Source of the DNA: Scytalidium lignicola
Taxonomy: Eukaryota; Ascomycota; Leotiomycetes
Direction of reading: 5' to 3'
NCBI GenBank assembly: GCA_002812745.2
Contig: NCSJ02000168.1
Location: forward strand, 1 to 64,000
Length of the DNA: 64,000 nucleotides
Shown here: piece after piece, positions 8,955 to 26,448 of the stretch
Numbering within the stretch: the first letter of the stretch is position 1
How the letters are laid out: every line of letters begins with the position of its first letter
The notes under the pieces: generated by a model
The model's input: the letters and a program-made list of their open reading frames with translations, nothing else
What the model was told of the DNA's origin: nothing
Database searches by the model: none
Position numbers and translations under genes: made by a program

Positions 8955-10151
8955 TCAGAAATTCATCGATCCAGCTTCATAAGTCCCACCTTGGTGAATG
9001 CCCTTCCCAGCCGTAAAGTTTCCACTGAAGACTTGATGTATCGGTGAAGGGACGGGTACTTCGCCATGACGCCCATTCTGAACTGGCCTTATTGTCGGCC
9101 TCCATATCTTCAACATGCTTTTCGCGCAAGCTGCTGCCGTCGCTGCTGCATAAAGCTGCCACTCTTTATTCTTATGGCTATCTGCATAATCGCACACCCC
9201 TTTGATCACGATAGTTGGGATCGTCTCCCACAGCCCCGCTCCTTCCATCTCGAAAGCAACAATGTTTTCTTGCTTGGCGATGCAGTCTCGATGTTGAGCT
9301 GACTTTATGACCTGATCCCCAGAAGCAACCCCATCAAAATGCACGACCGGGTGGCATGGTGAGGCGCTGCTACCTTGGTCGATAGTTTTCTGGATCCGAA
9401 CACGGGAAACCAATTTGCTTGCATCACATCCGAGCTCGGTGCAAGGTAGATCCAATGCTTTCACGCAGACACTATCCCCAGGATTAAGGCACCGGGCACA
9501 AATTGTGCAAGCGTTTGCGTCTTGATGCTTGTGACGATAGTTCTCTTCAAGGAGCTTATCATCATGGACACCAGGGGATTTCGAATGCTCAAAGCCTTCC
9601 GCTTCCAAAATGGTGACAAGATTAGTTTGTATTTGTTTTTCGAGTTCGATCTGAGCGGTTTTGCCCTGTAGCCTCGACAGAAATCCTTGGATTTCTGGGT
9701 TCGGTCTTCCGAGACTGTCTTGTAGCGTGTCCATGCGGACAAAGCTATCTGGATATTGCCGCCCAAAATCCGTTTGAACAATCTGTGTGCTGATGATAAT
9801 GTCTTCCAAAATAATTTCTCGCTTGCCGCCATCTATGAAGGGAACACCGCCGCATATGCCAACCAACAAGCCAAGTCGGATCCGTGGGAAACTAGACCGC
9901 AAGTTCGCCGCGACGCTGGCCGCTGACACCTTGCCCATATGGGGCATATGGACTAACACCACATAGTGTTGTTCCACCCGGCCAATGGTATAGCTGTTAG
10001 TATCTCCATCAGCCTTCTCGTACAGCTCTTCCCGCTCCCAGTTATCGTCAAACAGCGTGATCATGGCATCAGCTTCGATACTTAAGGCGCAGATGATAGC
10101 AACTTCAAAGGCGTCGCGGCCTCGAGGTCGACTGTGTGTATTTGTATACAT
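8955..10151 (-). CDS. Stand-alone PNP_UDP (nucleoside phosphorylase superfamily) protein with C-terminal amyloid-like motif
   Basis: A single-exon 398-aa protein. Residues about 15-345 form a PNP/UDP-phosphorylase fold as found at the N-terminus of many fungal NLR-type proteins: FEVAIICALSIEADAM at the start, GLLVGICGGVP in the glycine loop and FEMEGAGLW...GVCDYADSHKNK at the end. A Cys-rich insert (CTICARCLNPGD) lies in the middle. The enzyme family cleaves nucleosides or AdoHcy-like substrates; in fungi it often acts as an immune effector or NAD/nucleotide-depleting module. The last 24 residues (375-398) leave the fold and carry FSGNFTAGKGIHQGGTYEAG, a Gly/Asn/Gln/aromatic repeat of the kind used as amyloid signalling motifs. 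The gene is divergent from the NACHT gene at 11209, whose N-terminus has a similar stretch. That suggests an effector/receptor pair (inference). Confidence 0.85.
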   Translation of the reverse strand: MYTNTHSRPRGRDAFEVAIICALSIEADAMITLFDDNWEREELYEKADGDTNSYTIGRVEQHYVVLVHMPHMGKVSAASVAANLRSSFPRIRLGLLVGICGGVPFIDGGKREIILEDIIISTQIVQTDFGRQYPDSFVRMDTLQDSLGRPNPEIQGFLSRLQGKTAQIELEKQIQTNLVTILEAEGFEHSKSPGVHDDKLLEENYRHKHQDANACTICARCLNPGDSVCVKALDLPCTELGCDASKLVSRVRIQKTIDQGSSASPCHPVVHFDGVASGDQVIKSAQHRDCIAKQENIVAFEMEGAGLWETIPTIVIKGVCDYADSHKNKEWQLYAAATAAACAKSMLKIWRPTIRPVQNGRHGEVPVPSPIHQVFSGNFTAGKGIHQGGTYEAGSMNF

Positions 10152-11208
10152 GGATGACTGTGTTGAAGACTAAATGTTTGCAAGAGAGGCTGGCAAGGTA
10201 GTAGTAAGTTTGGCCGAATAAGAAACCCAGAAGGCAGTATTCTGAGATTCTAAGAAATGCAAAGATAGTAATGCATGGGATTTCCTGATGAGAACGCACG
10301 GGAGGATAATAAAGACATCTTGGAGACGAGGCTGCGGAAGCGCTGACTAAGGAAGAAACTAGTAGGTTAGCAGAATAGATCCTTAAGAAGAGACCAAGGC
10401 AGATATGCAATAGTAGCTGGCGTTAAGACTCCGAACCCAGTTTCCTTAAACGGTTAACTTCAGCAGCAAGCCCATTGGGCTCTGCACGTTTGTCAGAATG
10501 GAGGCTGATCGATTAAGGGTTGATAGAGTCCGTACGCTCCGGGCGGTCGTTCAAGCAAGGGTCAAATAGATCACCAAAAACACATTGATTCCTTATCCCC
10601 TGCGATCTTTCAGCTTGGAGACATTGAAGCCTGATGCTGAGGCATTTTTAGCCACTATGAGGCTGTGGGACAACTCAGATGTTCCCAAGACGGTTGTAGT
10701 ACAGGTGGAGTGCTTAAGAAAAAAGGGCTTGATTTTAAGGAGGGTGATACTACGGCTCTATTCGATTCAGCGCACGAGGCCGACTTTGGCCTTTAGGCAG
10801 ATTTCCGGGCAAACTAATATTCCAGAATTGCGAAACTGTATTATCAGCACTAGTGCCCTCGAAATCGAATCACAGTGAGGGATGGCATTGCTGTGGTGTT
10901 ACCCGAGCAGCCAAAAATTGGACAGCAACTTGCATGTGCCCGCCCCAATTGGTAGTGCTATGAATGAGGGGCTTTATCGATAAATGGATCCTTATGCAGT
11001 CATTGGGCGTTCCCTAATAGCCCCTCACCAGAGTTTCCATAATAAACATTATATCTGCAAGTTAAATATCTTACTACCTAAGAGGAAATTTAATAAGGAA
11101 CTCGCGCGTTTAATCATATTTACTTTATTTCCACGCTTATAACAACCGACCGGCCAGACTGATTTGATCTCCGGCCTACTGTCCTATCGACTATCGTTTT
11201 TGCCGACA
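10152..11208. promoter_or_regulatory. Divergent intergenic region between the PNP protein and the NACHT/ankyrin gene
   Basis: About 1.06 kb separates two divergently transcribed genes, so it should hold both promoters. Small frames inside (10105-10410 on -, 10585-10878 on +) have no recognisable content. No clear TATA element or repeat could be assigned. Confidence 0.45.
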
Positions 11209-13431
11209 ATGGCAAGCACTCAAAAATTTGACGGTCATTTCGCTAGTAAATTTCACCAGTTTAATGGCAACAACTTTCAAGGTCCCGTATTTGTCCACAC
11301 GCCAGATTCAAAAGCTAGAGAAAATTCGTCAGCCGTGCAAAGCGATCCGCAGAGAAAGTTTGCAGAGCAAAGTCGTGGGGAGCACAATGAAAGATCCAAA
11401 TATGGCCCCGAGGAGGGCTTGGAGTGGAATGGTTAGTTGCTATAAGTCTTTCATTTTGAAATAACTATTCTAACGAAGAAGATTGTTTTCATTCTCTGGA
11501 ATTTGAAGCATCAGATTATCGAGAAGAAGCGATAGATAGACATACAAATGGGACTTGTGTATGGATTCTTCAATCGCCTGAATACTTGCGTTGGGTCAAC
11601 CAATACGGTTTGCTTCTTATTAGAGGCAAACCTGGTTGCGGAAAATCCACGCTATTGAAGTTTATTCTGGAAAAACAGATAGAAGCTACGGCCTCTTCGG
11701 GAGGTATTGTGATGTCNTTTTTTTTTCTACGCTAGTGGCACAGAGCTTCAGACTGGCGTAGTGGGACTCTTTCGGTCCCTTCTTCTTCAATTATTGGACC
11801 AAGATGATAGTGCAAGATCGACCTTTCAAGACATCTGTCGCAAACGATGGACCAGAGAAGGGAAGAAGAATAAACAACTAACATGGCATCGAACTGAGCT
11901 GAAAAACAATCTTGAGAAGCTTATACTTGAGTGTTCTACTGGACAAAAAATCACGATATTTGTTGATGCTATTGATGAATGCAGAGACCAAGATCGAGAT
12001 GATGTCATCAAGTTCTTCCACAGTCTAAAAGATAGGTTGGCGGTATGCCTTACCTGTCGTCTCCATCCAGACGGACAGATTGATGAAGATTTTAGGATCC
12101 GCCTTGACGATGAAAACCAGGAAGATATAAAAAAATTCATTGAACGGGAGTTGCGTCTCCCAGATGAAAATGAGACAGCCAAGGACGAGCTTAAGCAGCT
12201 TCTTCGTAGCAAATCTGACGGAATGTTTCTCTGGCTTGTCTTGATTATCCGACAAGTCCACGAAATGAGCAGTAAAGGTGTAAATATGAAAGTTATTCAA
12301 TCAGAGATATCGAGATGTCCCAAACAATTAGATGGGATTTACAAGGGTCTTCTTCAGGCAATTGAAGACAGTGAGCTGCTAGAAGCAGGCAGATTATTCC
12401 AATGGATTTGTTTTGCGGCCCGGCCACTATCAGTTGATGAACTCAGGATTGCGTTAACAATCCATCTCAGTGGGCCTAAACACTCATTGGAGGAGTACAG
12501 AGACGAATGCAACCCTTACTACATTCCCAATGAGCAAAAAATGAAAAAAAGAATGATATATTTAACTAGAGGTCTTGCAGATGTTTCAAATTCAAAGTCA
12601 GCGGAGGGGAAAACTTTTGTTCGATTCTATCATGAGACGATCAAAGAATTCATGATTAAAGATGGCTTACAATATCTTGACAGTAGACTGAAAAGATCCC
12701 AAGGCTTCGTTGTGACCGCCAATTTTCAACTAGCAAATACGTGCCTAGACTACTTATCCACAACAAATATTCGTATCGCCTTTTCAGGGACACAGATGAG
12801 ATCTCCAACAAAATTCTTGTTTCTACACTACACAACAATGTATTGGCTTGATCATGCTATTAATGCAGAGAAAGATGGGTTCGGAGAAGAGGTCAAATGG
12901 TCATCCCAAGACGCTCTTAAAATATGGGTACGCACAGGCAGTACTATAGAACAGGATTCAAAACAATCACCCGAAGAAGGTACTAGCTTAATGCATATCG
13001 CAGCAGAGCATGGATTAGAAAGGCTAGCTAAACATATCATCGGTGAGAGCAAGCAAGAAACGAAAGGTCTAGCACAAAAATCATTCACGCGGACTACACC
13101 AAGGTCTAGAATAAATGTCTCAGATTCTAGTGTTCAAGAATCGGTGAAAAACGGACCCAGAGATAATAGACAACAGAGTCCTATGGTAATATCCAATATT
13201 ATCAGGCAAAATTGTTATAACTCTAAAGGAGGATCTAACTCAAACATTAGTAAAGCGCGTGAACAGGCGAAAAGTCCTACTAAGGGAAGCATGCGAAAAG
13301 TTACAGGCTACCAGAAAGTTCTAGGGCAACAAGGGAACCATAAAACTGGATCTGGAAAACAACGTTTGAATATTCAGAATTATATTATTGTTGGCATGGT
13401 CACATGTAGGCTAGAATCACGTGTAGATTAG
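11209..13431 (+). CDS. NACHT-domain NLR-type protein (N-terminal motif + NACHT), frame broken only at an N/poly-T run
   Basis: Exon 1 (11209-11431) encodes a 74-residue N-terminus with FDGHFASKFHQFNGNNFQGP at residues 7-26. An intron at 11432-11481 (GTTAGT...AAG) joins in frame to the conserved pre-NACHT segment (CFHSLEF, then TCVWILQSPEYLRWV). Walker A is GKPGCGKST (around 11630) and Walker B is IFVDAIDEC (around 11955); a sensor-like LTCRLHP follows. The frame is lost only at 11717-11726, an N followed by nine Ts, where one base less restores VMSFFFYASG; this is almost certainly an assembly artefact. After the NACHT module come a helical region (WICFAARPLSVDELRIAL), an ankyrin-like start (SLMHIAAEHGLERLAKH), and a low-complexity Ser/Lys/Gln-rich linker to 13431. 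The ankyrin array begins 150 bases later, so gene and array were probably one NACHT-ANK receptor. Confidence 0.8.
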
Positions 13432-13563
13432 GTGCACGTGTAGATAAGATAAGGCTAGTTCGGTTGCGGTAGGGGAGGGCGGTACTGTACGGCAGTACTC
13501 CCCATATAACTACCGCAGTACGAACTTACCTATAGCTAACAACAATAAACTACCATATCAACA
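13389..13563. mobile_element. Possible small solo LTR between the NACHT and ankyrin segments
   Basis: The 175-bp interval starts TGTTGGCATG and ends ATATCAACA, giving the 5-bp inverted termini TGTTG/CAACA typical of LTRs. It contains a TATA-like CCCATATAAC and a duplicated CACGTGTAGAT-type motif. Flanking pentamers are ATTAT (13384-13388) and CGTAT (13564-13568), matching at only 3 of 5 bases. Removing the interval plus one pentamer does not exactly restore the frame between the two coding blocks. So either further mutation occurred, or this is an ordinary linker or intron. Confidence 0.35.
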
Positions 13564-13580
13564 CGTATTACCTCCATATA

Positions 13581-15131
13581 TTGGAGATGTACGTTCACCG
13601 TAGAGGTGAACCGACAATTATAAATGTACAAAATAAGGCAAGAGAACTTCCTTTGCATTTAGCGGCACGCCATGGCCACACCAAAATAGTCAAAATTCTG
13701 CACGAATACAGAACGCAGGTCAATACAGCAAATGAAAAAGGCTGCACAGCATTTTATTTAGCATCGGTTAACGGTCATCTCGAAGTGGTGAAATTCTTGT
13801 ATGAGCATGGAGCAGACGCAGATATTCATGCATCAAACAAAGACGGTTGGACTCCACTCAATGCAGCATCTAGTAATGGTCATCTTGACGTGGTGAAATT
13901 CTTGTATGAACATGGAGCAGATTCAGATATTCATACAACAAGCAAGAATGGTTGGACTCTACTCAATTCAACATCGGATAGTAGCTATCTCAACATTGTG
14001 AAATTCTTGTATGAACATGGAGTAGATGCAGATATTCATACAACAAACAAAGGCAGTTGGACTCCACTCAATTCAGCATCGGATAATGGCCATCTCGACA
14101 TTGTGAAATTCTTGTATGAACATAGAGCTAATGCAGATATTCATGTATTAAACAAAGACGGTTGGACTCCTCTTAATTCAGCATCGAATAATGGCCATCT
14201 CGACGTAGTGAAATTCTTGTATGAACACAGAGCAGATATAAATATTCATACAACAAGCAAGAATGGTTGGACTCCTCTCAATTCAGCATCGAATAGTAGC
14301 CATCTCGACGTTGTGAAATTCTTGTATGACCATGGAGCAGATGCAGATATTCATACGACGGACAAGAATGGTTGGACTCCACTAAATTCAGCATTAGATA
14401 GTAGCCATCTCGACATTGTAAAATTCTTGTATGAACATAGAGCTGATGTAGATATTCGTACGACGGACAATGATGGCTGGACTTCACTCAATACAACATC
14501 TAGTAATGGTTATCTTAACGTAGTGAAATTCTTGTATGAACATGGAGTAGATGTAGATATTCATGTATCAAACAAAGACGGTTGGACTCCACTCAATGCA
14601 GCATCTAGTAATGGTCATCTTGACGTGGCGAAATTCTTGTATGACTATGGAGCAGATGCAGATATTCATATATCAAACAAAGACGGTTGGACCCCACTCC
14701 ATACAGCTTCAGTACATGGCAATCACGAATTGGTGAAATTCTTGTGTGAGTATGAAGCATGGAGAGATATTCGCCGTATAACATACAAAAACGGTTGGAC
14801 TCCACTTCATGCAGCATCAAATGCCGGTCATCTCGACGTAGTGGAGTTCTTGTATAAGCATGGGGCAGAAATACATGCGGTAGATCAAAAGGGCTCAACA
14901 CCCTTATACTTAGCATCAAAAAGTGGTCATCTAGAAGTGGTCAAGTTTTTATGTGAACATGGAGCAAATTCAGATATCCATGTCGTCGCGCGGAATGGCT
15001 GGACTCCACTCTATGTTGCATGGAGTAAAAGTCACCTCGAAGTGGAGAAGTTCTTATTGGAGCATGGAGCAGATATAGATGTCTATGCGGTGATAACTGA
15101 GGGCTTCCCACTACTGTATTTGGCACCATAA
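13581..15131 (+). CDS. Ankyrin-repeat array, probably the C-terminal half of the upstream NACHT protein
   Basis: The frame (516 codons, first ATG at 13587) consists almost entirely of ankyrin repeats: two diverged ones at the start (LPLHLAARHGHTKIVKILHE, then TAFYLASVNGHLEVVKFLYE), about eight nearly identical 35-residue units with the core VKFLYEHGADADIH and GWTPLN, and four more diverged units at the end. The period is 35 rather than the usual 33, because two residues (DIH region) extend each loop. There is no start context of its own and it begins directly within a repeat, so it is best read as the ligand-binding part of the NACHT protein, detached by the 13432-13580 interval. Ankyrin arrays in fungal NLR-type proteins are the presumed recognition domain and change fast. 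It could alternatively be expressed as a separate ankyrin protein from ATG 13587. Confidence 0.75.
   Translation: MEMYVHRRGEPTIINVQNKARELPLHLAARHGHTKIVKILHEYRTQVNTANEKGCTAFYLASVNGHLEVVKFLYEHGADADIHASNKDGWTPLNAASSNGHLDVVKFLYEHGADSDIHTTSKNGWTLLNSTSDSSYLNIVKFLYEHGVDADIHTTNKGSWTPLNSASDNGHLDIVKFLYEHRANADIHVLNKDGWTPLNSASNNGHLDVVKFLYEHRADINIHTTSKNGWTPLNSASNSSHLDVVKFLYDHGADADIHTTDKNGWTPLNSALDSSHLDIVKFLYEHRADVDIRTTDNDGWTSLNTTSSNGYLNVVKFLYEHGVDVDIHVSNKDGWTPLNAASSNGHLDVAKFLYDYGADADIHISNKDGWTPLHTASVHGNHELVKFLCEYEAWRDIRRITYKNGWTPLHAASNAGHLDVVEFLYKHGAEIHAVDQKGSTPLYLASKSGHLEVVKFLCEHGANSDIHVVARNGWTPLYVAWSKSHLEVEKFLLEHGADIDVYAVITEGFPLLYLAP
13746..15126 (+). repeat. Tandem ~105-bp direct repeats encoding the ankyrin units
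   Basis: The phrase GTGAAATTCTTGTATGAACA recurs with small changes at about 105-base intervals (for example near 13890, 13998, 14103, 14208, 14523), together with GGTTGGACTCCACTCAAT. The DNA-level similarity of units 2-9 is much higher than needed to conserve an ankyrin fold. It indicates recent unit duplication or gene conversion. Units near the right end are more diverged. Confidence 0.85.
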
Positions 15132-15382: not shown

Positions 15383-17999
15383 TCAAAGGTACATTTTGTC
15401 AGATTGAAGTTTGATCTTATGGACCCTTGCCACATGATGTTTGAAATTCTCTTTGTTATTGAGAACCACCTCACGGGCCATACACACTGGATGGACGCAA
15501 ATGATCGGTTGACATGCTGGTATGAGGCCCAAGCGATGAACCTTCTCAACATGGGTCATCATGTGTAACATGCGAGAAAATGTGCGTGTTCGTTCTTTAT
15601 AACTTAGCCGTGTATCCCCAAGACAAAGGATACACTGGGTCTTCTTGCAAATAAGTGGGAACCGTTCATGTTGTGACTGAGGTGTAGGACAAGGAGACTC
15701 TTGCCTAATTGTATTTACACGCACAGCTGGAGGGCGCCGTGGCTGACGAGTTTGGCACTCTTGGCATAAGGCGAGTGCAACAAGGAGGATGATTGTAGTC
15801 ACTTTCCGAGTAACGATCTCCTGCGGGGTCAAGTTTCTCGAGAAATCGCAGAGGACCTCCTCTAGGAGGGTCTGCTCTTTAAGCTGATGTTGAACCTTAG
15901 GTCTTTCGCTTGTCTCCTCAATCACGGATGGGTTGAACTGCATCTTCATCATCTTGCTGTATGCACAGTGCTCGTAGTCCTTGTCGTAAGCGTCATGGAT
16001 TGCCTCCTCTAGGCTCTTCTTCTCGTTTTTTAATTGGTTCTTGAGCTTATTGTGCTCTTGCATCTCCTTCTCTGGTGCATGATTGATGAACTTGTACTTC
16101 GCCTTGAGCTGCGTATTATTTGTGTCAACTTGTTGCCGAAGGTTAGCAATCTTAGGATCTGCATCCATAACCTGATCTACTAAGTCTGAAGGTGCTTTGG
16201 AATGGCTGACAAGGTGGCGTCGAACGCTCATATGGGTAAACGCTTGCGTCAACCTATCCTCGGTAATCTCACCGTTAAGATAAGCGTCTTGTACATTAAG
16301 TCGGACATGTTCGTTTATATATACTCCATCGAACGTCCCCATGAGAGGTTGCTGGTGTGTGACTTGATCATGCACTGCAACTTTGCCTGTATTTGCAGAT
16401 TGTCTTTTAGTTCGCAAGAAAATACACCAGAAGGAGGCAAGAAACATACTATCGACTGCATTAAGCAAGGCTCGGCGGAAACAATATGTGGTCAAGATGT
16501 CTAACAAGTTTACAGCTTTTCCAATTCGTTTGAGATAGAAGTTGAACTTGGTATAGAGAAAAGCCTTTGTTTTAGACTTTACCCACAATCCATTCTCTAG
16601 CACAGATTGCTGAAAGACAGGACCTTTGAGCTACTCTGGTTTCCATCGCACCGGTATAGCCGGCCGGCCCATGCACCGCAGGTCCGTCTTGAAAAATTTC
16701 TCGGGATCATTCCAGTCATCAGCAAGAATCGCGTCATCCCGGATAGCACGAGCTATAAGGTGAGAGATTGGACAGAGGATTGGGAGATCATTCTCACGGA
16801 ACAAGAAGATTGTCCTGCAAGAAGGTAAAAGTAAGCCAAAGTAACAACGTAGTTAATGAAAAGATAAGAGAGAGTACATACAGTTTGGGCTTATTGTTGA
16901 CTCCTTTATGATTCCGGAGGAAAACTTCCATAGCAAGAAGGTCTCTCCCTCCTGGCTTTGGATTTTGTACAATCCAGAGCTCAATATCCTCGTAACAAAG
17001 TGCTTTGCACCCCCTGATCTCCTCATCGAAGCTGCTTAGCATCGGAGTGTCTTTGTAACTCAACGGCAGGTGACTTTCATTGCTGATTTCTACGGGACAA
17101 CAGTCCGTCCTATCCTCAGTCATAGCAACATCGCTACCCTCACTGTTGTACCCGCTATCTGTGAAACTGTCGTCAATTCTTAGCCTATTGAGAATAGATC
17201 CGTCCTCGACTTCTCCTTCATCGTCACTGTCGAAGAGCTGTTCGTCCTCGTCCACGAGATTGTCATCCTTCTCCGCCCAACAATCTTCATCATCACTATC
17301 AAAGAGATCTTCCTCATAACTGTTAAAGAGCTCTTCGTCAGAGAGATCGTTGTTCGTCCCATAAAGATCATCAGAAGGAGAACCATCATTTAAGCTATCA
17401 GCAGCAGTAGCAGCATTACGCTCTTGTGTCCCTTCTACTTCACCTAGAGGGTCTTTGCTAACGTCACCTTTTGATGCATCGACGAATTCGGCTGGTCGAC
17501 CACCTGTGTAGGCCAAGAAGAGCATAATAGCGGCAGTATCCAGGCGGTCATCTTCAGTGGGGAGGACACTTTCATCGCATGCCCAGTGGTACGATAATGC
17601 AAGAAGTAGCTCATCTGGTCTCACAACGGGCTTAGACTTAGGCATAATATCCAATTTATAGTATTCCATGAGAAAGCCGTTGATATACTTTATATTATGA
17701 AGTTAACAACATGACAGGAACAAAAATGCAAAGGATAGAAATGAAAGAGTAAAAATCACCTTGACGACCTTGTAAGAGTTATTCACGTTGACATATTCAC
17801 TATTAACTCGTCGATAAAGTATCTTGAAATCTTGCCAATATTGATTAATCGTCTTTCTCTTAGTTCTCTTCCTTCGTATAAGCTTTGGCAGGACATAAGT
17901 CTTGTAGATCCAGTGCAAAAATCCTATCATCTTCCCCTTAGTACACTTTGCCACGATAAGAGCTCTCCGCAAGCACTTCTGCTTCTTTATCTTACAATA
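15383..17999 (-). pseudogene. DUF3435 (tyrosine-recombinase-like, Starship-captain-related) protein, interrupted by a stop
   Basis: Reading from right to left, exons encode LVAKCTKGKMIGFLHWIYKTYVLPK-type sequence in two parts, then LLLALSYHWACDESVLPTED with LFLAYTGGRPAEFV, an acidic Ser-rich insert, and after an intron (GTATGT...GCAG near 16820-16885) LPILCPISHLIARAI. Next come YCFRRALLNAVDS, a second in-frame intron (GTATGT...ACAG near 16390-16450), a coiled-coil stretch and a C-terminal Cys/His segment (CILCLGD...HMMTHVEKVH...CVHPVC...HHVARVH). This order is that of fungal DUF3435 proteins, the family that includes Starship captains. A TAG at 16631-16633 replaces the expected Trp of a RWKPEW motif and is the only clear lesion seen. 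The 5' end is not resolved: stops occur upstream of about 17999 and an N sits at 18070. Whether this lineage is a captain or a related DUF3435 gene cannot be told here. Confidence 0.75.
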
Positions 18000-24010: not shown

Positions 24011-26448
24011 CTACTCTAAAAATTCGACAAAGTCTTGATCCATCCATGATGGTTTTGCATTATTCTCCTTTGTAGCTGTCGTTTTATTATATTGTGCTGT
24101 AGTTGTAGTTACTGTAGCAAGTATAGGATCAATTGCTAATGCTTCATTCACCATAGAAACTAGCCTTTCACTACCATTTTCAACAGCATCTAGCTGGCTT
24201 AAATGGCTGTTATATGTGCTTTCTAACACAAAATCAACTTCTTGCTCTTCATCCACGGAAAGTATCGCATTGTTGAAAGTGGCTGGATCAACTGGTTTAT
24301 TTGGTGTTGTAACTAATAAGGATGCTGGTACAAGGTGCTCTTTTGTCTTCCTTCCTTGGGTAATACGTCGAATTGCAGCTTTGCGTTCTCTTTCCTTTTT
24401 ATTCCACTCTTTTAGCTCTTCCTTATATATCTTCTTGATTTGTGCTTCTTGTTTCCTTTGAGTGATCTGAGCTTGTTTTTGTAAAGCAGCTTCCTCCTGT
24501 TGCTTTTTGATATGAAGCTTTTCTCGAAGATCAGCAACATAGCCACCATCTTTATTCTTGGTGATTCTTTTCCGACTTCGTGCTTTAACTTCTGATATCT
24601 GCTTCCAACTTGATATAACAATAGATTGTTCAGTCTGTGTAAGATCTAAATAATCAAGCATAAACTTCGTGCCTTTGATTGTTGACAAGTGCTGTTAAGC
24701 TGAAGGACTAGAAAATACTTCTGGAATACGCGTTTCTAGCTCTTCTAGGGCTTGAACACCATGACGTACAGTTCTAGGCGTTGAAGGAAGAGTAGGGAGT
24801 GTTAACTCTTTTGGTTGATCAGGAATAGAGTATGTGCGAAGCTTGGAAAGCGTTTTGCTAACTTCGATTGGCCATATACCACTATCACGAAAAGCATGGC
24901 GTATAGTAAGCTCTGTGAAAGTATGCTCTCGAATTTTGGTCAAATCACGAAGGAAAGAAGTGACTGTATACTCTGGTTCAAGGCGTCCAAGTGCTTCACG
25001 TATAGCTCTTTTATGATACCACTTATATGGTCGAAATACCTTTACATCTAAAGGTTGAATAATATGCGTCAAATGCGATGGAAATTCCAATGGAATAATG
25101 TGATACTTTTCAGCCAACTCAATAAACTCTCTAGATTCATGAGATTCATGACCATCAACAAGAAGAAGCTTGTTTTTAATTGGTTGACCAGTCTCCAAAT
25201 CAATATATTTATGATTTTTTGAGTGCCAAACTCCTTGTTTTGCACCAGAATATTTGATGAAATGTTGTAGCCAAATTACTCCAACTTGGTTATTAGTATA
25301 ACCTTTCTCAGTAGGAATAATTCGAGCGTTACCAGGAAGGTTATCTTGTGCCCAATTTTCCATAATCCATACACCTTCAACAAGGATGACTGGAGGAATA
25401 GAAGCTTTTCCATCGGCTGAGACGCATTCTATAACAGTGACAGACTTGCGGTTTTGAAAAGTACCTTCATACAACTAATAATTTATTAGTAAAAGGATGT
25501 ACTTTATAAGAATATATTTATTTTAATACCTCTTTAATTTCTACTGGCACAATAACTTCCTCTCCAGGTGTAACACCAACCCGAAAGCCTGTCTCGTCCA
25601 TATTGTAAATATTATACCTATCATGTTACGGGTTTTACCTAACAAGCTGATTGGTGTAGGCCTGAGGCTCGGTACAGAGAAGGTGTACATAGAGAACCTA
25701 ACAATCAGAGGTCACGTGATGGAGTCCTAGGATCCTTGGAGGACTCCAGAGGACTCCCAGGACTCCAAAGGGTCCAGCAGGATTTCATTATCTATATAAG
25801 CACACTGTAGGAACATGAGAGTAGACTCCTTGTGTTCAACCTAAATACATTACTAGACCCTACCTTGGATTTAGCCGCTTGCTTGTGTGTCACACGTTTC
25901 CGTTGTCCCTGAACATCTACCTTACCCTTGGCTATCCAGTGACCTGGATGGCGTAGTTTTGTAACATATCAACGTTGTTCTCACACTTCAGATCTTCATA
26001 TTTCAAGAACCACTGTTCTATAACCTCTTTATCTTGAGCTTTAATTCGCTCCTTCTCAATTGGTTTAGTGGTAATAATATGAAATGCAGGATTGCCTTGT
26101 ATAAACCGTCGTAACCATGCCATTGAAGGTTCTTCTCCACTGCCATTAAGGTGTGTAGCTGCCCTTATAACCATAGCTCTGTTTAATGGGTTTCCATCAT
26201 ATGCTTGCTTGCGAATATGAGCATTTAAAGCTTCGATTTGGTGTGGTTTTAAGAAAGAAGGGCGTCCACCAAGATTTCTAGCTTTTCTAGTAGTTGATTC
26301 ACGTCGAATTGCTTTGCGAAGAGTGTTGACTTTGAGCTTGAATATACGTGCTGTAGCTGTGACAGTAGCACGATCATTGAGGTCTTTTTNGGTTGTCGAA
26401 ATACCATTGCATAGCTTCTTGCAATTGTTCTTTGATGGTAGTAGTCAT
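24011..26448 (-). pseudogene. DDE_1-type (pogo/Fot1) transposase, interrupted
   Basis: From ATG 26448: an N-terminal helix-turn-helix region (GRPSFLKPHQIEALNAHI), a CENP-B/Tc5-like second DNA-binding part (PSMAWLRRFIQGNPAFHI), then the catalytic domain with YNMDETGF (first Asp), LLLVDGHESHES (second Asp region) and LTHIIQPLDVKVF (last part of the DDD core). A coiled-coil, lysine/glutamate-rich tail ends in WMDQDFVEF. An intron at 25475-25529 joins in frame. Lesions: an N beside a T run at 26390 that shifts frame (probably assembly), a solo LTR at 25624-25966, and TAA at 24695-24697 in frame before the tail. The protein would cut and paste elements with these termini; this copy is unlikely to make a full product. 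Confidence 0.85.
25624..25966 (+). mobile_element. Solo LTR (343 bp) nested in the transposase, exact 5-bp target duplication
   Basis: It begins TGTTACGGG and ends TTTTGTAACA, with 6-bp inverted termini TGTTAC/GTAACA. The plus orientation is suggested by a TATA-like TATCTATATAAGC in its right half. It is flanked by TATCA at 25619-25623 and again at 25967-25971. Removing the LTR and one TATCA restores the transposase frame across the catalytic YNMDETG motif. No internal retrotransposon sequence remains, so it arose by LTR-LTR recombination. Confidence 0.9.

What the first reader, a model, noticed from the sequence alone, without database searches (positions are those of the whole stretch)
8955..11431. 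Split PNP effector and NACHT receptor with matching terminal motifs: candidate amyloid-signalling immune pair
Seen: the stand-alone PNP protein leaves its fold at the C-terminus with FSGNFTAGKGIHQGGTYEAG (residues 375-394). The divergent NACHT gene starts with FDGHFASKFHQFNGNNFQGP (residues 7-26). Both share F-x-G-[N/H]-F-[T/A]-[A/S], an H-Q pair and spaced Gly/Asn/aromatic residues. Known: in HET-S/NWD2 and SesB-type systems an effector gene next to an NLR gene carries a C-terminal amyloid motif matched by the NLR N-terminus. Inference: this is such a pair with a PNP_UDP effector. In most fungi PNP is fused to NACHT, so the split form is notable. I cannot assign the motif to a named class (HRAM, sigma, PP).
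Basis: partly seen in the sequence, partly recalled or inferred. Interest (0 to 1): 0.85.

Follow-up and report, generated by a model that had tools for sequence, protein, structure and literature searches.

The report
Fungal immune receptor–effector pair, receptor interrupted
Two neighbouring genes of a wood fungus form an immune receptor and a nucleotide-cleaving effector that probably recognise each other through short matching end motifs, a known kind of fungal immune pair kept in other fungi, although here the receptor gene has been cut by a transposon remnant.

Summary
In this one pair the likeness is not above chance (143 of 2000 shuffles score as high). Orthologues rescue it: the PNP tail is in 36 of the 38 best PNP homologues and the NLR stretch in 18 of the 25 best NLR homologues. 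The two profiles align without gaps over 20 columns and beat 300 of 300 column shuffles, also with sequences not picked by motif. Twelve PNP/NLR pairs share a contig, five with adjacent locus tags. So this is a receptor/effector pair of the NWD2/HET-S kind with a PNP_UDP effector, a kind already in print (PMC3321046, PMC9815663). The motif fits none of the printed PP, sigma or PUASM patterns, but the receptor side ends like a NACHT-sigma N-terminus. It may be the motif PF01048_015, whose sequence I could not see. New fact: a 228-bp solo LTR splits the NLR between NACHT and ankyrin repeats, so this allele is probably dead or truncated. Amyloid formation was not tested. Organism: Scytalidium lignicola.

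The parts
8955..10151 (-). PNP_UDP_1 (PF01048) effector gene, 398 aa, single exon; MTA/SAH-nucleosidase-like fold
8958..9029 (-). effector-side C-terminal motif, residues 375-398 (FSGNFTAGKGIHQGGTYEAGSMNF)
11209..11431 (+). NLR exon 1 (74 codons and one base)
   Evidence: NCBI B7463_g8022 starts identically
11221..11298 (+). receptor-side N-terminal motif, residues 5-30 (QKFDGHFASKFHQFNGNNFQGPVFVH)
11432..11481 (+). intron 1
   Evidence: agrees with the protein P0121
11482..13388 (+). NLR exon 2 up to the insertion; NPHP3_N/NACHT at about 11550-12060; one N at 11717 in a T run breaks the frame (likely assembly ambiguity)
13389..13616 (+). 228-bp solo LTR (TGTTGG...CCGACA), target duplication ATTAT at 13384-13388 and 13617-13621; brings an in-frame TAG at 13429-13431
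13617..15131 (+). ankyrin-repeat part of the NLR (presumed ligand-sensing arm), in the same frame as exon 2 before the insertion

Best explanation
The two genes are (by descent) a receptor/effector immune pair. The NLR (NACHT plus ankyrin repeats, no effector domain of its own) would oligomerise on sensing a ligand; its clustered N-terminal 25-residue motifs would take up an ordered beta fold and template the like motif at the C-terminus of the stand-alone PNP. The clustered PNP domains would become active and destroy an adenine nucleotide, most likely ATP, killing the cell. Shown here: gene arrangement, domain content, likeness and conservation of the two motifs, conserved nucleosidase catalytic residues, persistence of the pair in other fungi, disruption of this NLR by a solo LTR. 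Inferred: amyloid-type templating, ATP as substrate, cell death. In this strain the receptor arm is probably not functional unless the LTR is spliced out.
For: PNP tail in 36 of 38 best PNP homologues, the window's own included. NLR motif in 18 of 25 best NLR homologues, the window's own included; of the 7 misses 6 are gene models that lack the N-terminal stretch and 1 (P0127) carries another motif. Profile-profile P 5.4e-6, 20 ungapped columns, 0 of 300 column shuffles; with sequences chosen without regard to the motif (36 of 38 PNPs, 17 of 25 NLRs) the same 20 columns align, 0 of 300. A tail HMM scores 16 orthologous NLR N-termini above 95 other NLRs (rank test p 1.2e-9). Mean pairwise identity: PNP body 0.61, linker 0.25, tail 0.63 (36 sequences); NLR motif 0.58, linker 0.28, NACHT part 0.60 (18 sequences; both sets chosen for having the motif). 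Twelve pairs on one contig by equal contig length, the window's own included; five have adjacent locus tags. In the 8 of 12 pairs where both motifs can be read, own partners are more alike than re-paired ones (361 of 40320 permutations as good; 18 of 720 without the two P. salamii pairs). P. salamii pair P0034/P0144: 11 identities without gaps, 0 of 2000 shuffles. An orthologous NLR with a different N-terminus (P0127, Coleophoma) matches tails of another PNP group: 0, 1, 0, 0, 0 of 2000 shuffles for 5 of 9 such tails tested. M302, E303, D321 in 38 of 38 aligned PNPs, aligned with MTA/SAH nucleosidases.
Against: The window pair alone is not above chance, and the window's NLR scores poorly with the tail HMM, rank 57 of 120, -1.2 bits. 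Only 1 of the orthologous NLRs scores well on its own with such an HMM (P0143, 15.2 bits); the rest are separated only as a group. A first unselected test that kept truncated models and gap-rich columns gave 20 of 150 and 18 of 150 shuffles as good, its shuffles including odd scores over 100. The motifs were not tested for amyloid formation; AlphaFold gives four short strands in the tail at pLDDT 44-47, too low to rely on. The permutation test has few and partly related pairs. No partner with a matching tail was found for the Coleophoma NLR (an insensitive search). The NLR is interrupted.
Confidence: 0.74

Rival explanations
1. The same receptor/effector pair, but the matching ends act as ordinary docking or co-oligomerisation peptides (tail to N-terminus) without an amyloid fold.
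For: The two sides differ systematically (receptor HQLNGNxFxGPV, effector NIHNGGTYTAESINF); nothing here tests the fold.
Against: An ungapped pattern with spaced Gly, Asn and aromatic residues, placed at the two termini after variable linkers, is what the described amyloid signalling motifs look like (PMC3321046, PMC9815663, passages and two stretches read); the receptor side matches the end of NACHT-sigma N-termini, 0 of 60 shuffles.
Confidence: 0.16
2. The likeness of the two ends is convergent: the PNP tail serves the enzyme's own assembly, and the neighbouring NLR is regulated otherwise.
For: The single pair is within chance; other PNP groups carry other tails.
Against: Profile match 0 of 300 shuffles, shared contigs and partner-specific likeness.
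Confidence: 0.06
3. A housekeeping purine phosphorylase beside an unrelated NLR.
For: The domain is PF01048.
Against: The 50 solved folds listed (of 499 at E 0.001 or better) are MTA/SAH nucleosidases and futalosine hydrolases, not phosphorylases (also the 23); the pair recurs on shared contigs in other fungi.
Confidence: 0.02

Closest known systems
PNP_UDP/NLR pairs with PUASM (Wojciechowski et al. 2022, PMC9815663)
   Same: Stand-alone PNP_UDP with C-terminal motif beside a NACHT NLR with matching N-terminal motif, Pezizomycotina.
   Different: Printed PUASM pattern FxGxGxQxxGxGxF is in 0 of 38 PNP tails and 0 of 25 NLR N-termini; profile match to the two printed PUASM peptides is within shuffles (3 of 60 for the tail, 20 of 60 for the NLR motif). 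The paper's second PNP-linked motif, PF01048_015, is not printed in the text I read and may be this one.
sigma motif, sesA/sesB/het-eN (Daskalov et al. 2012, PMC3321046)
   Same: Ankyrin NACHT receptor; the second half of the receptor motif (HQLNGNxFxGPVxF) aligns with the end of NACHT-sigma N-termini (NQFPGATFxGPVYF), 0 of 60 shuffles.
   Different: The printed sub-motif patterns GxGxQFN and GGTQN are in 0 of 38 PNP tails and 0 of 25 NLR N-termini; the PNP tail does not match sigma (53 of 60 and 8 of 60 shuffles as good).
NWD2/HET-S
   Same: Divergent neighbouring genes, receptor N-terminus matching effector C-terminus (PMC3321046, passages read).
   Different: Effector is an enzyme, not the HeLo pore former; one motif copy at the effector end, not two; no HET-s family among the Pfam matches.
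Detocs PNP (bacterial ATP nucleosidase)
   Same: PNP-fold immune effector; reviews say the bacterial one cleaves ATP (PMC10197012 and PMC11249213, passages read; the original paper was not read).
   Different: Bacterial, part of a two-component system; substrate of the fungal protein untested here.

Membership tests
NLR/effector amyloid-signalling pair (functional kind) | Effector and NLR genes adjacent | tested here: met
   Window: start codons 1,058 bp apart, divergent; five Penicillium pairs with adjacent locus tags
NLR/effector amyloid-signalling pair (functional kind) | Effector C-terminus and NLR N-terminus alike | tested here: met
   Profiles 0 of 300 shuffles; window pair alone not significant
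NLR/effector amyloid-signalling pair (functional kind) | NLR without an N-terminal effector domain of its own | tested here: met
   P0121: no best-scoring Pfam stretch starts before residue 98 at E up to 10. The exon-1 piece given was out of frame by one base and counts for nothing
NLR/effector amyloid-signalling pair (functional kind) | Motifs form cross-seeding amyloid and trigger cell death | not testable with these tools
   needs peptides and cells
PUASM | FxGxGxQxxGxGxF | tested here: not met
   0 of 38 and 0 of 25
PF01048_015 (presumably the 'PUASM 2' of PMC12261475) | its profile | not tested
sigma | sub-motifs GxGxQFN and GGTQN repeated three times | tested here: not met
   0 of 38 and 0 of 25; no PF17106 match for P0121 or P0001; receptor half resembles the sigma end
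PP | FxGx(x)NxGLQLxGxNxGxL, core NxGxQxGxN | tested here: not met
   0 of 38 and 0 of 25 for both
HRAM / HET-s | HET-s repeat (PF11558) | tested here: inconclusive
   not among families up to E 10 for P0121 and P0001, but HMMER's filters drop weak matches and the HRAM sub-families were not searched
PNP_UDP_1 (PF01048), nucleosidase-like | domain and catalytic Glu/Asp | tested here: met
   M302, E303, D321 in 38 of 38; E26 in 34 of 38, 3 gaps and 1 Lys; alignment
ATP nucleosidase effector | cleaves ATP to adenine | not testable with these tools
   enzyme assay needed

The most novel reading that the evidence does not exclude
The pair defines an undescribed asymmetric amyloid-signalling motif family: one shared first half (QxFxGxFx[AS]), a receptor second half of sigma descent and an effector second half related to the tails of other PNP groups. 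That would make it a link between sigma and PNP-associated motifs, with motif exchange between orthologous NLRs (Coleophoma form) showing how new signalling channels arise.
Probability: 0.3. Interest if true: 0.62.

Novelty: new member of a known kind. Interest (0 to 1): 0.43.

Why it matters
It adds a conserved PNP_UDP/NLR pair, seen together in Scytalidium and in Penicillium species, with a motif outside the printed PP, sigma and PUASM patterns, and gives a set of aligned pairs on which co-variation and cross-seeding can be tested. The interrupted receptor is a natural broken allele beside an intact effector, as expected for fast birth and death of fungal immune genes.

Tried and rejected
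Other carriers of the motif in the same genome: a PNP-tail DNA pattern (FxGxxFxAGK) has one more match (C403), not in an open frame over 80 aa, so probably chance; FDGHFA has one more (C58), and I saw no NACHT or PNP there by eye, without a search; a receptor-motif peptide and an H-Q-[LF]-N-G-N pattern find only the window. Of the 12 other PNP matches of the genome (some are pieces of one gene) I read the ends of 6 open frames (L007, L008, L009, L011, L012, L013): none has such a tail; L006, L010 and L017 gave no frame with the key words, and L014-L016 were not read.

A first comparison with sigma used sequences picked by their GPxxF end, which favours the result; it was repeated with NLRs picked by PF17106 alone, 24 of 26 used, two with long extra N-termini left out. 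A third group of PNP tails (7 sequences) matches neither profile beyond shuffles (5 of 60 and 3 of 60; those shuffles included scores over 100).

Selection: the PNP tails were taken by F-x-G-x-F in the last 60 aa (misses P0013, P0035) and the NLR motifs by [FY]-x-G-x-[FYM]-x-S in the first 60 aa (misses P0124, P0127, P0135, P0138, P0140, P0142, P0145), which favours a match. Tests without that choice: all 38 and all 25 (and 37 and 24 without the window's), 20 of 150 and 18 of 150 shuffles as good, with odd shuffle scores over 100; I put these down to gap-rich columns from truncated models. One search, chosen by tail length and P-loop position (dropped: P0002, P0013; P0124, P0135, P0138, P0139, P0140, P0141, P0142, P0145), gap-rich columns removed: 0 of 300 and no score over 60. 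The 120 proteins listed are the best of 2884 and of 228.

The search for the Coleophoma partner found nothing at E 10 among 20 candidates. A Starship reading of the neighbouring DUF3435 gene was considered and not pursued: it is degenerate, and solo DUF3435 genes are said to be the commoner case.
Full report
What is there. The window is part of contig C75 of a 46.9-Mb fungal assembly; the NLR is listed by NCBI as B7463_g8022, partial, of Scytalidium lignicola, a member of the Leotiomycetes. On the minus strand, 10151 to 8955, lies an intact 398-aa PNP_UDP_1 protein (PF01048, 6.8e-10). On the plus strand from 11209 lies an NLR: a first exon of 74 codons and one base, a 50-bp intron (11432-11481), a NACHT-type NTPase (PF24883) and ankyrin repeats.

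Is the likeness real? Taken alone, no: 143 of 2000 shuffles of the NLR stretch align as well, and the best local alignment uses a different register. With relatives, yes. A search with the PNP gave 2884 homologues, 120 listed. In 36 of the best 38 the protein ends in a stretch close to HQVFSGNFTAGKNIHNGGTYTAESINF, at or next to the stop, after a linker that is hardly conserved. A search with the NLR gave 228, 120 listed; 18 of the best 25 begin with a stretch close to QNFxGxFxSxxHQLNGNxFxGPV. Six of the seven misses are models without that stretch. The two profiles align without gaps over 20 columns, P 5.4e-6; none of 300 column-shuffled profiles scored as high, trimmed or untrimmed. Because those sequences had been picked by the core pattern, I repeated the test with sequences picked without it (36 PNPs, 17 NLRs): the same 20 columns, 0 of 300. 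A cruder version with truncated models left in was not conclusive (20 of 150 and 18 of 150). An HMM of the tails puts 16 orthologous NLR N-termini above 95 other NLRs (rank test p 1.2e-9), but the window's own NLR is only 57th of 120: its copy of the motif is a divergent one. Mean pairwise identity is 0.61, 0.25 and 0.63 for PNP body, linker and tail, and 0.58, 0.28 and 0.60 for NLR motif, linker and NACHT part (sequences with the motif).

The pair is kept. By equal contig length, twelve PNP/NLR pairs lie on one contig, the window's included; five have adjacent locus tags (Penicillium lividum, verrucosum, angulare, taxi, thymicola). PNPs with the tail are also listed from Aspergillus, and NLRs with the motif from Stromatinia, Sclerotinia and Aspergillus. 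In the eight pairs where both motifs are in the models, own partners are more alike than re-paired ones (361 of 40320 permutations as good; 18 of 720 without P. salamii); the sample is small and partly related. In a P. salamii pair the match is plain by eye, FSGSFSSGKNMLNGGTITAESI against FSGHMSSQSHQLNGVTINGNAI, 0 of 2000 shuffles. The NLR of Coleophoma crateriformis (P0127, 59% identical over the aligned part) has another N-terminus, LSGHLSSGGGTQLIGATINTGGGAVML, which matches tails of another group of PNPs (0, 1, 0, 0, 0 of 2000 shuffles for five tails tested of nine). Its own partner was not found.

Which motif class? Printed patterns of PUASM, PP and sigma are in 0 of 38 PNP tails and 0 of 25 NLR starts; no Pfam HET-s or sigma family is reported for either window protein. 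Against profiles: the PNP tail and the NLR motif both match the tails of nine other PNPs (0 of 60 shuffles each); the tail does not match sigma, and neither matches the two PUASM peptides beyond shuffles (3 of 60 and 20 of 60). The NLR motif's second half matches the end of NACHT-sigma N-termini, 0 of 60 shuffles, with NLRs chosen by PF17106 alone. So the receptor side looks half sigma, the effector side does not. PMC9815663 mentions one more PNP-linked motif, PF01048_015, seen in four pairs, and PMC12261475 speaks of PUASM 1-2, the second presumably that motif (passages); its sequence is in supplements that I could not open, and it may be this motif.

The enzyme. AlphaFold gives a mostly confident domain over about residues 10-350 (low at 131-150), a disordered linker and a low-confidence tail with four short strands. 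The nearest solved folds are MTA/SAH nucleosidases (499 matches at E 0.001 or better, 50 listed; best 4bmx). M302, E303 and D321 are in 38 of 38 aligned sequences and fall on the EMEGA and SDxAD motifs of these nucleosidases. Reviews state that bacterial PNP immune effectors cleave ATP, and one that PNP_UDP modules hydrolyse ATP in immune cell death in several kingdoms (passages read). ATP as substrate here is inference.

The receptor is interrupted. A 228-bp repeat, TGTTGG...CCGACA, sits at 13389-13616 between 5-bp copies of ATTAT; 40 further scored matches lie in the genome, several 97-98% identical. It is a solo LTR by these marks. Before it landed the NACHT part and the ankyrin part were one frame, and orthologues P0122 and P0126 match both parts in that order. 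It brings a stop at 13429-13431; the NCBI model leaves out part of it, as an intron would. A separate N at 11717 in a T run is probably an assembly ambiguity. The effector gene is intact.

Known or new? Pairs of UDP-phosphorylase/PNP effectors and NLRs with matching ends are in print since 2012 (PMC3321046, passages read) and 2022 (PMC9815663, two of 13 stretches and passages read). A search for five motif strings found no paper; in what I read of the papers found no passage named this pair. I file it as a new member of a known kind.

Noticed in passing
window 13389-13616: Solo LTR with ATTAT target duplication inside the NLR gene; 40 further scored matches in the genome.
   Followed up: yes
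window 15383-17702 (-): Degenerate DUF3435 gene (PF11917, one in-frame TAG) with Cys/His-rich C-terminus, next to the NLR and transcribed towards the pair. DUF3435 is the Starship captain domain, but solo copies are said to be commoner; 30 DUF3435 stretches were scored in this genome.
   Followed up: partly
window 24695-25474 (-): DDE_1 transposase fragment (PF03184, 8.1e-13).
   Followed up: no
window 11717 and 7469: Single N beside homopolymer runs; likely assembly ambiguities. The first breaks the NLR frame.
   Followed up: partly
window 8955-10151, residues 130-260: Insert relative to MTA/SAH nucleosidases with invariant H207, H209, C229, C237, C242 and near-invariant C215, C218 in 38 PNPs: possibly a zinc site, not mentioned in what I read.
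   Followed up: partly
P0127 (Coleophoma crateriformis BP5796_12317): NLR orthologous in the NACHT part but with a different N-terminal motif that matches tails of another PNP group: possible motif exchange.
   Followed up: partly
P0141 and P0126 (Penicillium lividum N7490_001806 and N7490_001808): Two NLRs with the motif lie near one PNP (N7490_001809, P0011) by locus tags: perhaps two receptors for one effector.
   Followed up: no
P0042, P0057, P0063, P0068, P0094, P0099, P0106: A third group of PNP tails (like EFRGPTMVSGGMVFQGNY), conserved among themselves; receptor partners unknown.
   Followed up: no
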